Part shown: positions 33,606 through 38,723 of the stretch, in pieces
Layout of the letters: every line of letters starts with the position of its first letter
How positions within the stretch are numbered: the stretch's first letter is position 1
Source: an uncultured Lachnospiraceae bacterium
Lineage (GTDB): Bacteria > Bacillota > Clostridia > Lachnospirales > Lachnospiraceae
Direction: 5' to 3'
Assembly: GCA_949893755.1 (NCBI GenBank)
Contig: CATLCV010000004.1
Coordinates: forward strand, 1-64,000
DNA length: 64,000 nt
Position numbers and translations under genes: made by a program
The notes under the pieces: generated by a model
Seen by the model: the letters and a program-made list of their open reading frames with translations, nothing else
Database searches by the model: none
What the model was told of the DNA's origin: nothing

Positions 33606-33650
33606 AAGGAAAGCGAGATTATAAGGAACTGCAGGAAATGGAATCTGTAC

Positions 33651-33742
33651 TATACCTTGTGAAACGGCCGAATGGCCATAATGGGATGCCCTTGGGTATA
33701 CCTTGTGAAATGGCCGAATGGCCATAATGGGATGCCCTTGGG
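33651..33742. repeat. 46-bp near-perfect tandem direct repeat (x2)
   Basis: TATACCTTGTGAAAYGGCCGAATGGCCATAATGGGATGCCCTTGGG repeated with one mismatch; contains GGCCGAATGGCC palindrome. Confidence 0.9.
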
Positions 33743-33868
33743 TATAAAAGAACAGAATTTCTACTACAGGTTCAATGACAGATTGGGAAGTTTTTATTAT
33801 GATGATCCTGATACAGGCAATTTGTAATGGAATATGGCCATTCCATTCAGAAGGAAGGAGACAGGATC

Positions 33869-34243
33869 ATGAAAGTAAGAACAGATTTTGTAACAAATTC
33901 GAGCAGCAGCAGTTTTATTTTGGCGAGGAAAGGGGAACTGACGGAGAAGCAAAAGGATATCATTGTGCAGCTTGTTGTGGATAGAATGCTTGGCGAAAGG
34001 ATACTGATCCCTGAAAATAGTGAGGAAGAAATACAAAAAGTATTTGAAGAGCATTATATTGAAGAAGACGATCAGAAACAGATCAGAACTGCATTAAAGG
34101 AAGGAAAATCCATTTACAGCGGTTGGATCAGCTTTGAAGAAAGTGATTATAATCTGGCAAATATGTTCACCAGACTGTGGGAAAAATTAGAGGAAGCGGA
34201 CAGCGATCATTTTGAAACCATTGACGGCTCATTGGATTATTAG
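33869..34243 (+). CDS. Small acidic protein with N-terminal KVRTDFVTNSSSSSFI motif
   Basis: 125 aa from ATG with ggaaggagac RBS; 14 bp before radical SAM gene. Confidence 0.75.
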   Translation: MKVRTDFVTNSSSSSFILARKGELTEKQKDIIVQLVVDRMLGERILIPENSEEEIQKVFEEHYIEEDDQKQIRTALKEGKSIYSGWISFEESDYNLANMFTRLWEKLEEADSDHFETIDGSLDY

Positions 34244-34257
34244 GGGCAGGACAGGGT

Positions 34258-35352
34258 ATGAGGATACGAAAAGAAAAAGAGTTCTTATCCTTTTTTGATG
34301 AAGAGACCGGGCGGTATATGCGGACAGGCATCATCAAAGGGGGAAAGGATACAGGGGAGGACCCTTTTATGAGTTCCTTCCCGGAGCTTCTCGATGTAGG
34401 GATCATGGGGCACTGTAGGCATGGAAAAAGCGGATTATGTATAAAAGCAGGTGTAGAATGCTACCAGGACGGCCTGCACGCGGAACAGCCCAATATGAAG
34501 CTGCAGGATTTTAAAGAGCTTACAGCCCAGTGCCGGGGGAAGACGTATCAATTTGCTTTGGGCGGCTGCGGAGATCCGGATCAGCATGAGAATTTTGAGG
34601 AGATACTGCATTTATGCAAAAACGCAGGTATCGTGCCTAATTTTACGACCTCCGGGCTTGGAATGAATAAACACATTGCCACACTTTGTAAGAAGTACTG
34701 CGGTGCAGTTGCTGTCAGCTGGTATCGAAGTGAATACACGCTCCATGCCATAGAATTGCTGACGGCGGCCGGGGTGAAAACAAATATCCACTATGTTCTG
34801 GGCAGGCATACGGCTGCGGAAGCACTGCAGAGATTAAAAGAACGCAGCTTTCCCGAAAAGATCAACGCAGTTGTGTTCCTGCTTCACAAACCAGTGGGAT
34901 TAGGCAGCCGCGGCAATATGATCCGGCAGGATAACGAAGACTTCCGAAGGCTTATAGAGTATGTATCTTCCGAGTCCTGCCGCTATAAAATCGGGTTTGA
35001 TTCCTGTACGGTTCCCGCATTGATCAGGCATCCGGGAAATATAGACGCAGACAGCCTGGACACATGCGAAGGGGCCAGATGGTCAGCCTATGTCACTCCG
35101 GATATGAAGCTGCTGCCCTGCAGCTTTGACAATCAGGAGCAGAGATGGGCGGTGGATCTGAAAACACATTCTGTGCAGGAAGCCTGGAACAGTGAGCGCT
35201 TTGAGGAGTTCAGGAATCATTTCCGCAGGGCATGCCCCGGGTGCGGGATCAGGGCACAGTGCATGGGCGGCTGTCCCATCAGACCGGAGATCGTCTTGTG
35301 CAGTGGGAAAGAGAATACAGTCACAGAAGCAGCAGGCGGACGGATTGGATGA
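34258..35352 (+). CDS. Radical SAM/SPASM-like protein with Cx7Cx6C N-terminal cysteine motif
   Basis: GHCRHGKSGLCIKAGVEC...LGGCGDPDQHENFEEIL...CPGCGIRAQCMGGCPIRPEIVLC. Confidence 0.82.
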   Translation: MRIRKEKEFLSFFDEETGRYMRTGIIKGGKDTGEDPFMSSFPELLDVGIMGHCRHGKSGLCIKAGVECYQDGLHAEQPNMKLQDFKELTAQCRGKTYQFALGGCGDPDQHENFEEILHLCKNAGIVPNFTTSGLGMNKHIATLCKKYCGAVAVSWYRSEYTLHAIELLTAAGVKTNIHYVLGRHTAAEALQRLKERSFPEKINAVVFLLHKPVGLGSRGNMIRQDNEDFRRLIEYVSSESCRYKIGFDSCTVPALIRHPGNIDADSLDTCEGARWSAYVTPDMKLLPCSFDNQEQRWAVDLKTHSVQEAWNSERFEEFRNHFRRACPGCGIRAQCMGGCPIRPEIVLCSGKENTVTEAAGGRIG

Positions 35353-35399
35353 ACCAGTCCGTCCCCTTTTATGGCCTTTTATTTTCCACAGATTCGGTG

Positions 35400-36554
35400 C
35401 TATTCTATCACGCGAAATGCTTCACAAGTCATGGAGCTCCGTTTGCTGCCGGTGAGAGTACCTTCGATTTCAACGTACAGCCCTTTTTCATGGGCTTCGA
35501 TGGCCCTTCCATAGTCATTGTGGTCAAGCAGTACGGCGGTGCTTCTCTTTTTCTCATGTTCATCCAGATATACCACGGAGATTTTTCCGTTTTTCCGCTG
35601 AGTTACATCAGGGGAAGACTCCAGTTTATTGATTCGCCCGAGAATCTTTGTTAAGGTTTTCTTCTTTTCTTTTAACCTTCCCGCAGCAGTCAGAAGGGGC
35701 TGGCAGTAATCGTGTGTAAGCAATATTTTACTTCTCACGTCCATTTTGTTTTTTACTGCAGGAGACCATTCTGCCGTAAACTCAACATTGGCGCCCTCTG
35801 TATCAAGATTCAGTCCGGTCAATGCTTCGTAAAAATTTGCGCTTATGATATCCGTGCTGCTTTTTGAAAGCAGACCGTCCAGGTTGCCCTCATCAATATG
35901 CTCCTTGATCTGGAAAATATTATCCATTACACGTGTAGTCACCTGCCTGGTCAGGGATCTGGCGCACTGCTCCTCATCGGAAAAAATACTCAGCTGCTTA
36001 TAGCCTTCCTCTTCATCTAATTCGGCAAAGGGACAAACGACAGAAACTACATAACTTCCGACCTCTGTCTGTCCAAAACGGCAGCCGGATAAAAATTGGG
36101 AAACGGCATCATCTGTTCGTCCCTGATGATATTTTCTGGGATGAAGGATATCCCGCGTTGCCGCGCCTAACAGCTTTTTGGCATTTTCATACATACGGAT
36201 GGCATCGTCAAAAAGAATACTTCCGGCCTCAATATCATTCCGGATCAGTCTGATCTTCAAGATATCTGTGTTGGGATTCAGCAAGTATAACATGACCTGT
36301 TCTACAGATTTATTTTCTGCTTCGGCAACGGTTGTTACTGCTTTATACATTGCCTCTTTGTAGTCAGACAGCTGTTTTTCAACAGGGATGATCACCTGGT
36401 AAAAAGCATCATTTTCTTCAAATTGAAAAATCTTTATATGTGTTTTTTTGCTGGGAAAAAGATTCCATCCGGTATCTTTTAAATATTTAGAAAAAGCAAG
36501 TGGATTGATTTTTTCTGTCAGATCTAAAAAATTAACGGAATAAATCATGGCCAT
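35400..36554 (-). CDS. Uncharacterised protein encoded with DUF4365-like protein
   Basis: 384 aa; start overlaps 3' end of upstream gene by 10 bp. Confidence 0.75.
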   Translation of the reverse strand: MAMIYSVNFLDLTEKINPLAFSKYLKDTGWNLFPSKKTHIKIFQFEENDAFYQVIIPVEKQLSDYKEAMYKAVTTVAEAENKSVEQVMLYLLNPNTDILKIRLIRNDIEAGSILFDDAIRMYENAKKLLGAATRDILHPRKYHQGRTDDAVSQFLSGCRFGQTEVGSYVVSVVCPFAELDEEEGYKQLSIFSDEEQCARSLTRQVTTRVMDNIFQIKEHIDEGNLDGLLSKSSTDIISANFYEALTGLNLDTEGANVEFTAEWSPAVKNKMDVRSKILLTHDYCQPLLTAAGRLKEKKKTLTKILGRINKLESSPDVTQRKNGKISVVYLDEHEKKRSTAVLLDHNDYGRAIEAHEKGLYVEIEGTLTGSKRSSMTCEAFRVIE

Positions 36555-37054
36555 TCCTCCCTTGCAATTTTTACTAAAAAATCATTTAATGTTTCTGGGT
36601 TTAATACATTGCTCTTATTGATTTTAATGGTGACTGTATTGGAATTGGCAGACTCCAAAGCATTAGAAAATTCTGCCCAGTACATACATCCTTTGATCAG
36701 TAATTCATCTGTGCTCCAGGAAATCCATTCCTCTTCATTTTCAGGCAATACCAATAGACCAAGTATAATGGGGGTGGTTGCCGGCAGACATAGATCATTA
36801 TAGTTTTTTACCTTCAATTTATAAGTTAGAACATTTCCATGATCTGTGTACTGGCTGTTTGATGAAGTACATTTTAATTGTATCCTTAATTCAGCATTAC
36901 ATTTTAATCCATTATCCAAAAGGATTCTCTTGCGGAGAGTACCATCGGTACTGTCGTCATCATGACGGACAGTTTCATACGCTATGCCGGCGTATGCACA
37001 TAATGCAGAAATATAACTGATGCTGATGTCCTCTTTTATCTGTGTCACTTGCAT
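36545..37054 (-). CDS. DUF4365-like (predicted PD-(D/E)XK nuclease fold) protein
   Basis: Pattern HDDDSTDGTLRKR...ELRIQLKCTSS (D...QxK core) at typical position; RBS AAGGAGGGGAGG. Confidence 0.75.
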   Translation of the reverse strand: MQVTQIKEDISISYISALCAYAGIAYETVRHDDDSTDGTLRKRILLDNGLKCNAELRIQLKCTSSNSQYTDHGNVLTYKLKVKNYNDLCLPATTPIILGLLVLPENEEEWISWSTDELLIKGCMYWAEFSNALESANSNTVTIKINKSNVLNPETLNDFLVKIAREEWP

Positions 37055-37077
37055 AGCGATCCTCCCCTCCTTAGTAT

Positions 37078-37134
37078 GCTATTATACGTTACATGTCGCG
37101 CCTGGTCAAGGTGTGATATGTAATGTATAATAGC
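37078..37134 (-). promoter_or_regulatory. Promoter TTGACC-N17-TATAAT embedded in 17-bp inverted repeat
   Basis: Arms GCTATTATACGTTACAT (37078-37094) and ATGTAATGTATAATAGC (37118-37134), one mismatch; -10 in proximal arm. Confidence 0.75.
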
Positions 37135-37293
37135 AGTCAGAGGGACAATTGGCCGGATGCCTTGCACCGTGAGTTGTATCCCGCTGCAAGGCACCGCATG
37201 GGATTCACCGTTCCATAAATTTGTTAAGAAAAAATCGTATTGTCCCTTTCACGCATATTTGCTATACTTTATGATAATAGAAGGAGGGTGCCT

Positions 37294-38723
37294 ATGAAAA
37301 TCATAAATATCCCTGTCGGAACTTCGAATTTTGCCGAGATCCGGAGGAAAGGCAGCTATTTTATCGACAAAACAGGTCTGATCGTACAGCTGCTGAAAAC
37401 ACAAAGTACAAAAGCGACATTGATCACACGGCCCCGCCGTTTCGGAAAAACACTTTGCATGAGTATGCTGTCGGAATTTTTTGACATACAAAAGGAAAGC
37501 AGGCATTTATTCGCCGGGCTTTCTGTCAAGATAATGACTCACTGGAACTTGCGGTGATCACAGGCTGTCTTAGGATCGCCAAAGAAAGCATTTTCACCGG
37601 GACGAATAATTTCGTGTCCGATACCATTTCCGATACGCAGCTCAATGAATACTTTGGATTTACCCAGGACGAAGTGAACCGTCTGCTTGCAGACACAGGG
37701 CTTACGCCTTATGCAGCTGAGATCAAGGAATGGTATAACGGTTATCATTTCGGTGATTTCGATGTGTATTGCCCCTGGGATGTCATGAACCATGTACAGA
37801 ATCTGCTTCTGGATCCGGGCTCGAAGCCTAAAAATTTCTGGGAAAATACGAGTGACAATGCCATCATCCGTACCTTTTTAAAAAGAACGGATTTTGATGT
37901 AAATGACAAGTACGAGACACTGCTTGCAGGAGGATATATAGTAGAACCTATTGAGGAAAATCTCACTTATGATGTGCTGGAGGGGTCGGAAGAAAATCTG
38001 TGGAGCCTGCTGTATCTGACGGGATACCTGACAAGAGCACGCCTGGAGGAGATTCCGGAGCTGCAGCTGCTTCCCGGCCAGTATGCGCTGAAAATTCCCA
38101 ATAAGGAGGTTCTTGGGATCTTTAAGAAAAGTGTTAAAGCCTGGCTGATGGAAACTACCGCGCAAAAAGACCGGAGGGAATTATTTGCGGCATTGTGGGA
38201 TGCGGACGCAAAACGGCTGACGGAGTTGATCTCGGATCTGCTGTTTGATACCATCAGCTATCATGATTATGCCGAAAGCTTCTACCATGCATTTCTCACC
38301 GGACTGTTCTCTAACGCCGGATACCGGGTGGAGTCCAATTATGAATATGAAAACCGGATCATTGTCCAGAACAGGACTACGCATTTACTGCGCTGTCCGT
38401 ATGATAACATAAAAATTGCAGAAGCAAGCCCCATTGCCGAAGGCAATTTTCATGGGCTTGCAGGTGCATCTGTGAAGGATACTGAACAGATGCACTTAGG
38501 ACGATCCGATATTGTGATCAAAGACCGGAAAAACCGCAGAGCCGTTGTCCTGGAGGCAAAGCGGACATACGATGAGGATAAGCTGGAGAGTGACTGCGAC
38601 GAAGCGCTTGCGCAGATTCAGAAGAAACGATATGTAAAAAAGGCAGAGCGCGACGGGTATAAGAATGTAGGCAGGCTGGGCATTGCGTTCTTTCAGAAGA
38701 AGTGCCTGGTGAAAAAAATGTAA
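37294..38723 (+). pseudogene. AAA-ATPase-like/PD-(D/E)XK nuclease (DUF1703-type) gene with internal deletion and frame change
   Basis: 5' ORF has IPVGTSNFAEIRRKGSYFIDKT...TRPRRFGKT; 3' ORF 37554-38723 has ITGCLRIAKESIFTGTNNF...VVLEAKRT; region between (Walker B) missing and frame shifted near 37530. Confidence 0.85.

What the first reader, a model, noticed from the sequence alone, without database searches (positions are those of the whole stretch)
35400..37134. DUF4365-like nuclease + uncharacterised 384-aa protein in a tightly regulated two-gene operon: candidate defense/conflict system
Seen: 169-aa protein with a nuclease-like core (HDDDSTDGTLRKR...ELRIQLKCTSS) overlaps the start of a 384-aa protein with no family I recognise. 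The operon has a strong promoter (TTGACC-N17-TATAAT on minus strand) whose -10 lies in one arm of a 17-bp inverted repeat (1 mismatch), an architecture fitting autorepression. It sits amid a radical SAM pair, Rpn nuclease and decayed PD-(D/E)XK genes. Established: DUF4365 proteins are predicted restriction-endonuclease-like. Inference: the partner senses or regulates and the pair is a defense or toxin-antitoxin-like module.
Basis: partly seen in the sequence, partly recalled or inferred. Interest (0 to 1): 0.8.

Follow-up and report, generated by a model that had tools for sequence, protein, structure and literature searches.

The report
DUF4365 nuclease–OB-protein candidate phage-defence pair
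Two overlapping bacterial genes encode a DNA-cutting enzyme and a partner that probably senses nucleic acid; they travel together on plasmids and in dormant viruses and match a catalogued but untested phage-defence candidate (PDC-M02), so the find is real but not a new kind of system, and the 'self-regulating' DNA element in front of it is an ordinary scattered repeat.

Summary
The two-gene operon is real. Gene A (36545-37054, minus, 169 aa) is a DUF4365 nuclease; gene B (35400-36548, minus, 382 aa from the better start) overlaps it by ATGA. Both match PADLOC's candidate system PDC-M02 (A 1e-51, B 7.5e-176), so the pair is catalogued but, as far as I could find, untested. Wherever both genes are intact they are paired: 30 full-length pairs plus a Nostocales short form, on plasmids, integrative elements and temperate phages, twice right behind a CI-like repressor. 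D37, Q59 and K61 of A are invariant in 30/30 and correspond to the published SPARDA DREN triad D41/Q60/K62; A's model matches only SPARDA nucleases in PDB. B has an N-domain, a middle domain (GxTxxGS) and a C-terminal OB-fold; Nostocales forms lack the middle domain. The operon is a 1.85-kb present/absent segment: a sister genome has 53 bp there. The 'autorepression' palindrome is a copy of a dispersed genus repeat (13 copies in this genome) and is absent upstream of the closest operons. Best reading: an Argonaute-free, DREN-like effector held and triggered by an OB-fold nucleic-acid sensor. Defence role likely; mechanism inferred.

The parts
36545..37054 (-). Gene A: 169-aa DUF4365 (PD-(D/E)XK-fold) nuclease, PDC-M02A; catalytic candidates D37, Q59, K61
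   Evidence: Pfam E 1.5e-18; PADLOC 1e-51; AF2 pLDDT 91, Foldseek PDB top 8 all SPARDA DREN, E 2.9e-6 to 2e-4; D37/Q59/K61 30 of 30
35400..36548 (-). Gene B: 382-aa PDC-M02B partner: N-domain (~1-91), middle domain (~95-295, invariant T161, G164, S165), C-terminal OB-fold (~297-382)
   Evidence: PADLOC 7.5e-176; AF2 pLDDT 84.5; Foldseek OB matches RPA/SSB/LysRS E ~2e-3; domain limits from Nostocales short form
36545..36548 (-). ATGA stop/start overlap of A and B (translational coupling likely)
   Evidence: sequence
37081..37109 (-). Sigma-70-like promoter TTGACC-N17-TATAAT
   Evidence: sequence; -10 equivalents precede the homologous operons L033-L035
37077..37135 (.).
35371..37221 (.). Present/absent segment: sister genome G007 has about 53 unrelated bp at this position between the same flanks

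Best explanation
This is a member of PADLOC's candidate defence system PDC-M02. A is a DUF4365 nuclease of the same catalytic type as the effector (DREN) of the short-Argonaute system SPARDA, but here it is a free-standing protein with no Argonaute or APAZ domain. B is its sensor/regulator: its OB-fold probably binds a nucleic acid that appears during infection (single-stranded DNA or RNA is the most natural ligand), its N-domain probably couples to A, and its middle domain adds regulation. By analogy with SPARDA, A would be inactive as a monomer and switched on when B assembles on its ligand, then cut DNA unselectively and stop the infected cell or the invader. Shown: families, pairing, invariant catalytic residues, folds (predicted), mobility. 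Inferred: complex formation, ligand, activation by assembly, antiphage outcome.
For: PADLOC matches of both genes. Pairing with stop/start contact in every locus with both genes intact, in Bacillota, Alpha/Betaproteobacteria, Spirochaetota, Actinomycetota, cyanobacteria and phages. A: D37/Q59/K61 invariant 30/30; these correspond to NbaSPARDA DREN D41/Q60/K62, where D41A abolishes nuclease activity and defence (PMC12205087), and to Q62/K64 of TmuRE (PMC10810196); Foldseek and PADLOC Aga_REase (7.7e-5 for a homologue) point the same way. B: OB-fold by structure, by a Pfam OB hit in one member (0.023) and by a weak match of the B profile to the DnaE OB region. Temperate phages with head/tail genes next door; directly behind a CI-like repressor in L052 and L050; end of a Mycobacterium prophage, a zone described as lysogenically expressed (PMC8092301). 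Beside Druantia III, a type III methylase, GmrS/HEC-06-like and AbiD genes, cas3. Sporadic: 3/399 Bacillota genomes, 1/12 in the genus; empty site in a sister.
Against: No experiment on this family was found; PADLOC status is itself a prediction from genome context. The OB ligand is unknown and OB-folds also bind RNA, proteins or sugars. B's middle domain has no recognised fold. A's structural match to DREN is TM 0.56-0.63. No complex of A with B could be modelled here. Four cases of broken or missing A beside intact B also fit a toxin-antitoxin reading.
Confidence: 0.5

Rival explanations
1. Toxin-antitoxin module: A is a constitutively toxic nuclease, B a tight antitoxin; function is plasmid/prophage maintenance or abortive infection after B loss.
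For: Two-gene overlapping operon on plasmids and prophages; in four loci A is lost or broken while B stays intact (L042 by IS1, L098 by an IS6-family element, L110 by frameshift, L101 absent), and intact A with broken B was not seen.
Against: Nuclease gene comes first and the partner is the larger, three-domain protein with an OB-fold, unlike most antitoxins; the supposed autoregulatory operator is not operon-specific; DREN alone is inactive in SPARDA (PMC12205087). The 4:0 count is small and most loci were found through B.
Confidence: 0.2
2. Type IV-like or sequence/modification-dependent restriction: B (OB + middle domain) recognises foreign or modified DNA directly and A cuts that DNA only.
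For: PD-(D/E)XK effector with a nucleic-acid-binding partner; neighbouring restriction genes in several loci.
Against: No methylase or motor is part of the pair; no fold known from modification-dependent restriction (for example SRA, EVE or YTH) was found in B.
Confidence: 0.2
3. Housekeeping or phage-biology role (for example DNA repair or phage genome processing) rather than defence.
For: OB-fold related to DnaE/SSB/RPA modules; genes occur inside phage structural regions.
Against: Sporadic in genomes, present/absent at a syntenic site, moves among plasmids and prophages at unrelated positions, tolerates loss of A.
Confidence: 0.1

Closest known systems
PADLOC PDC-M02 (PDC-M02A + PDC-M02B)
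   Same: Both genes match their models over full length, adjacent on one strand, A before B
   Different: Nothing structural; PADLOC gives no mechanism. Nostocales relatives with a 175-181 aa B lacking the middle domain are an architectural variant that still hits the models
SPARDA: DREN(DUF4365)-APAZ + short pAgo (Novosphingopyxis baekryungensis, Thermocrispum municipale)
   Same: DUF4365 nuclease with D..QxK triad and the same predicted fold
   Different: No Argonaute, no APAZ, no guide machinery; the nuclease is a separate 169-aa protein and the partner carries an OB-fold
phrog_27905 / phrog_27927 (phage protein families, unknown function)
   Same: A hits 7.6e-14 and B 5.9e-18: the pair is known from phages without function
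   Different: PHROG families are unannotated; only part of B is covered
Leptospira phage LE1 protein Q6NE06
   Same: Full-length structural match to B, E 7.6e-24, 381 aa
   Different: Whether LE1 also has gene A was not checked

Membership tests
PDC-M02 (PADLOC) | Gene A matches PDC-M02A | tested here: met
   PDLC04297, 1e-51, residues 1-168
PDC-M02 (PADLOC) | Gene B matches PDC-M02B | tested here: met
   PDLC04321, 7.5e-176, residues 1-382
PDC-M02 (PADLOC) | A and B adjacent, co-oriented | tested here: met
   4-nt overlap
PDC-M02 (PADLOC) | Antiphage activity | not testable with these tools
   No wet-lab data; no paper in the library names PDC-M02
DUF4365 nuclease | Pfam PF14280 above gathering score | tested here: met
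   67.6 vs 24.3 bits
DUF4365 nuclease | Conserved D..QxK catalytic residues | tested here: met
   D37, Q59, K61 in 30/30; correspond to DREN D41/Q60/K62
SPARDA | Short Argonaute (MID-PIWI) in the operon | tested here: not met
   No Piwi/Ago match for B in Pfam, PDB sequence or fold searches
SPARDA | APAZ domain fused to the nuclease | tested here: not met
   A is 169 aa and DUF4365 covers 8-158
Type II toxin-antitoxin | Autoregulation through an operator palindrome at the promoter | tested here: not met
   Palindrome is a dispersed genus repeat, absent from homologous operons
Type II toxin-antitoxin | A toxic alone, neutralised by B | not testable with these tools
   Only indirect: 4 loci with A lost, B intact; none the other way

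The most novel reading that the evidence does not exclude
An Argonaute-free DREN system: the SPARDA-type nuclease works with a compact sensor whose essential parts are an N-domain and an OB-fold (as the Nostocales short form shows), so that nucleic-acid-driven assembly of an OB protein, rather than an RNA-guided Argonaute, switches on collateral DNA cleavage.
Probability: 0.3. Interest if true: 0.65.

Novelty: new member of a known kind. Interest (0 to 1): 0.42.

Why it matters
PDC-M02 is a catalogued candidate for which I could find no published mechanism. The catalytic triad shared with SPARDA, the OB-fold, the natural short form and the position behind prophage repressors turn it into a testable hypothesis: one effector nuclease family run by two unrelated sensors (guided Argonaute, OB protein). 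It would also show how a defence gene cassette is carried by prophages for use against competitors.

Tried and rejected
Autorepression by the inverted repeat: rejected. B as an unknown or housekeeping family: rejected. E. coli carriers of the phage version, for a decay census: none found in 5,426 genomes. A shared domain between short B and Druantia DruH, suggested by a 6.7e-6 PADLOC hit, was not confirmed on a Rhizobium DruH. Sequence search of PDB with B gave nothing useful. The genome-contig scan with B alone found only three close relatives. One PADLOC call failed on a coordinate error and was repeated without that entry. Pfam hits of B below the gathering score (HexPS-like, 0.045) were dismissed as chance.

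Full report
WHAT IS THERE. The minus strand carries two genes. A runs 37054-36545 (169 aa). A is DUF4365 by Pfam, well above cut-off. B has no Pfam or NCBIfam family but both genes are full-length members of PADLOC's candidate system PDC-M02, A at 1e-51 and B at 7.5e-176. Each also hits an unannotated phage family. A third-party paper states that PDCs come from a guilt-by-embedding screen and that most await experimental validation (PMC12988326); no paper in the library names PDC-M02.

THE PAIR IS CONSERVED AND MOBILE. Relatives were gathered from genome contigs, plasmids and phages, viral contigs and whole genomes. In every locus holding both genes intact, A lies directly before B, usually with overlapping stop and start. 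Relatives come from Lachnospiraceae (63-79% identity of B) to plasmids of Phaeobacter, Methylobacterium, Entomospira, Streptomyces, Caballeronia, Tistrella and Nostoc and a Mycobacterium abscessus prophage (about 20-25%). Searching with A instead of B gave the same picture on plasmids. A and B distances correlate (Mantel r 0.84, 0 of 2000 permutations as high), which shows joint inheritance, not contact. The pair is rare and patchy: 1 of 12 genomes of the genus and 3 of 399 in the phylum with a full match (two further weak hits were DnaE-like proteins). Sister genome G007 has the same flanking genes with only about 53 bp between them where the window has 35371-37221, so this 1.85 kb was gained here or lost there.

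CONTEXT ELSEWHERE. On viral contigs the neighbours are real phage genes: major head, portal, terminase, tail. In L052 and L050 the pair follows a CI-like repressor in the same direction, where lysogens express genes. In Mycobacterium prophage prophi102-2 it is genes 1-2 at the end of the prophage; the source paper describes att-proximal cassettes of these prophages as lysogenically expressed (PMC8092301), though it does not discuss this pair in the passages I read. Defence genes lie near several copies: a Druantia III pair in Rhizobium (DruH by PADLOC, helicase by annotation), a type III methylase, GmrS/HEC-06-like and AbiD genes in Entomospira, cas3 in Streptomyces. I did not test enrichment statistically.

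GENE A. AlphaFold2 with 16 sequences gave pLDDT 91. The only significant PDB matches are eight SPARDA chains (E 2.9e-6 to 2e-4, TM 0.56-0.63 on the query). Residues D37, Q59 and K61 are identical in 30 of 30 aligned homologues. In NbaSPARDA the catalytic residues are D41, Q60, K62; D41A abolishes nuclease activity and defence, Q60A abolishes and K62A impairs activity; the isolated DREN domain is monomeric and inactive and is switched on by tetramerisation in a filament (PMC12205087). A profile alignment to the DUF4365 chain 9qbq places the D and the QxK in register, though at a non-significant E of 0.51.

GENE B. AlphaFold2 gave pLDDT 84.5. Nothing in the PDB matches the whole chain; the best partial matches are OB-folds of RPA, LysRS and SSB at E about 2e-3 and higher. 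The profile of B weakly matches the OB region of DnaE and one member hits Pfam's OB family at 0.023. A viral model, Leptospira phage LE1 Q6NE06, matches the full length. The middle domain holds the most conserved stretch, (R/K)xGQTExGS, with T161, G164 and S165 in 30/30; I found no known site like it. Nostocales plasmids carry a B of 175-181 aa that aligns to residues 1-90 and 296-380 and skips the middle. Their A genes form one clade (95/92) nested among full-length systems, so the middle domain was probably lost once and is dispensable for whatever is selected. The Azospirillum B (185 aa) keeps only the N-domain and is a different or decayed case.

THE PALINDROME. Copies sit between unrelated genes. 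Closest operons L033-L035 have a -10 box and RBS at the same place but no such palindrome. It may supply the -35 here; it is not evidence of autorepression.

HOW IT PROBABLY WORKS. Shown: catalytic-type nuclease, constant partner, OB-fold partner (predicted), mobility, temperate-phage carriage. Inferred: B binds a nucleic acid made during infection, assembles, brings A together and activates cutting. The toxin-antitoxin rival draws on four loci where A is broken or gone and B is intact (IS1 in L042, IS6-type in L098, frameshift in L110, absent in L101) and none the other way; this also fits an effector that is costly to keep. My split of belief: conflict/defence role in general about 0.85; among mechanisms, sensor-activated nuclease 0.5, toxin-antitoxin 0.2, direct restriction 0.2, non-defence role 0.1.

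VERDICT. A real, conserved, mobile pair, member of the known candidate system PDC-M02 and not a new system. What this work adds is a mechanism hypothesis with named residues and domains, a natural short variant, and the removal of the regulatory claim.

Noticed in passing
window 37077-37135; other copies L003, L004, L005-L032, L059-L077: Family of dispersed palindromes (core GTTACANGTCACACCTTGACCAGGYGTGACNTGTAAC), 13 close copies in this genome and several in two sister genomes, none in nine others; some copies are extended by 'TCAGGCCGTCATTT', one (L019) by symmetric flanks. REP-like or terminator-like; origin not determined.
   Followed up: partly
window 33645-33750: About 96-bp dispersed repeat with dozens of copies in this genome and two sister genomes, some in tandem; folds strongly as RNA (z -3.9) and matches no Rfam family.
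   Followed up: partly
window 33827-35352: Small protein with an N-terminal stretch KVRTDFVTNSSSSSF next to a radical SAM/SPASM protein (34258-35352): looks like a peptide-modifying pair; in sister G007 the rSAM gene has an internal gap of about 95 bp relative to the window.
   Followed up: no
window 37240-38723: Gene with PDDEXK_9 C-terminus split by a frameshift (37240-37557 and 37554-38723); relatives are multi-copy in the genus.
   Followed up: partly
L092, L093, L101-L106, L110, L112: Nostocales plasmids carry a shortened PDC-M02B (N-domain plus OB-fold only), often beside a tyrosine recombinase or ParA genes.
   Followed up: yes
L042 4677-5960; L098 4636-4968; L110 2983-3484: Gene A interrupted by IS1, by an IS6-family element and by a frameshift respectively, while gene B stays open.
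   Followed up: partly
L113 1235-11001: Druantia III (DruH, DEAD/DEAH helicase) divergent from a PDC-M02 pair on a conjugative Rhizobium plasmid.
   Followed up: partly
L035 7456-9149: The pair sits between topoisomerase-like and primase-like genes with a relaxase-like gene nearby, as cargo of what looks like an integrative conjugative element.
   Followed up: no
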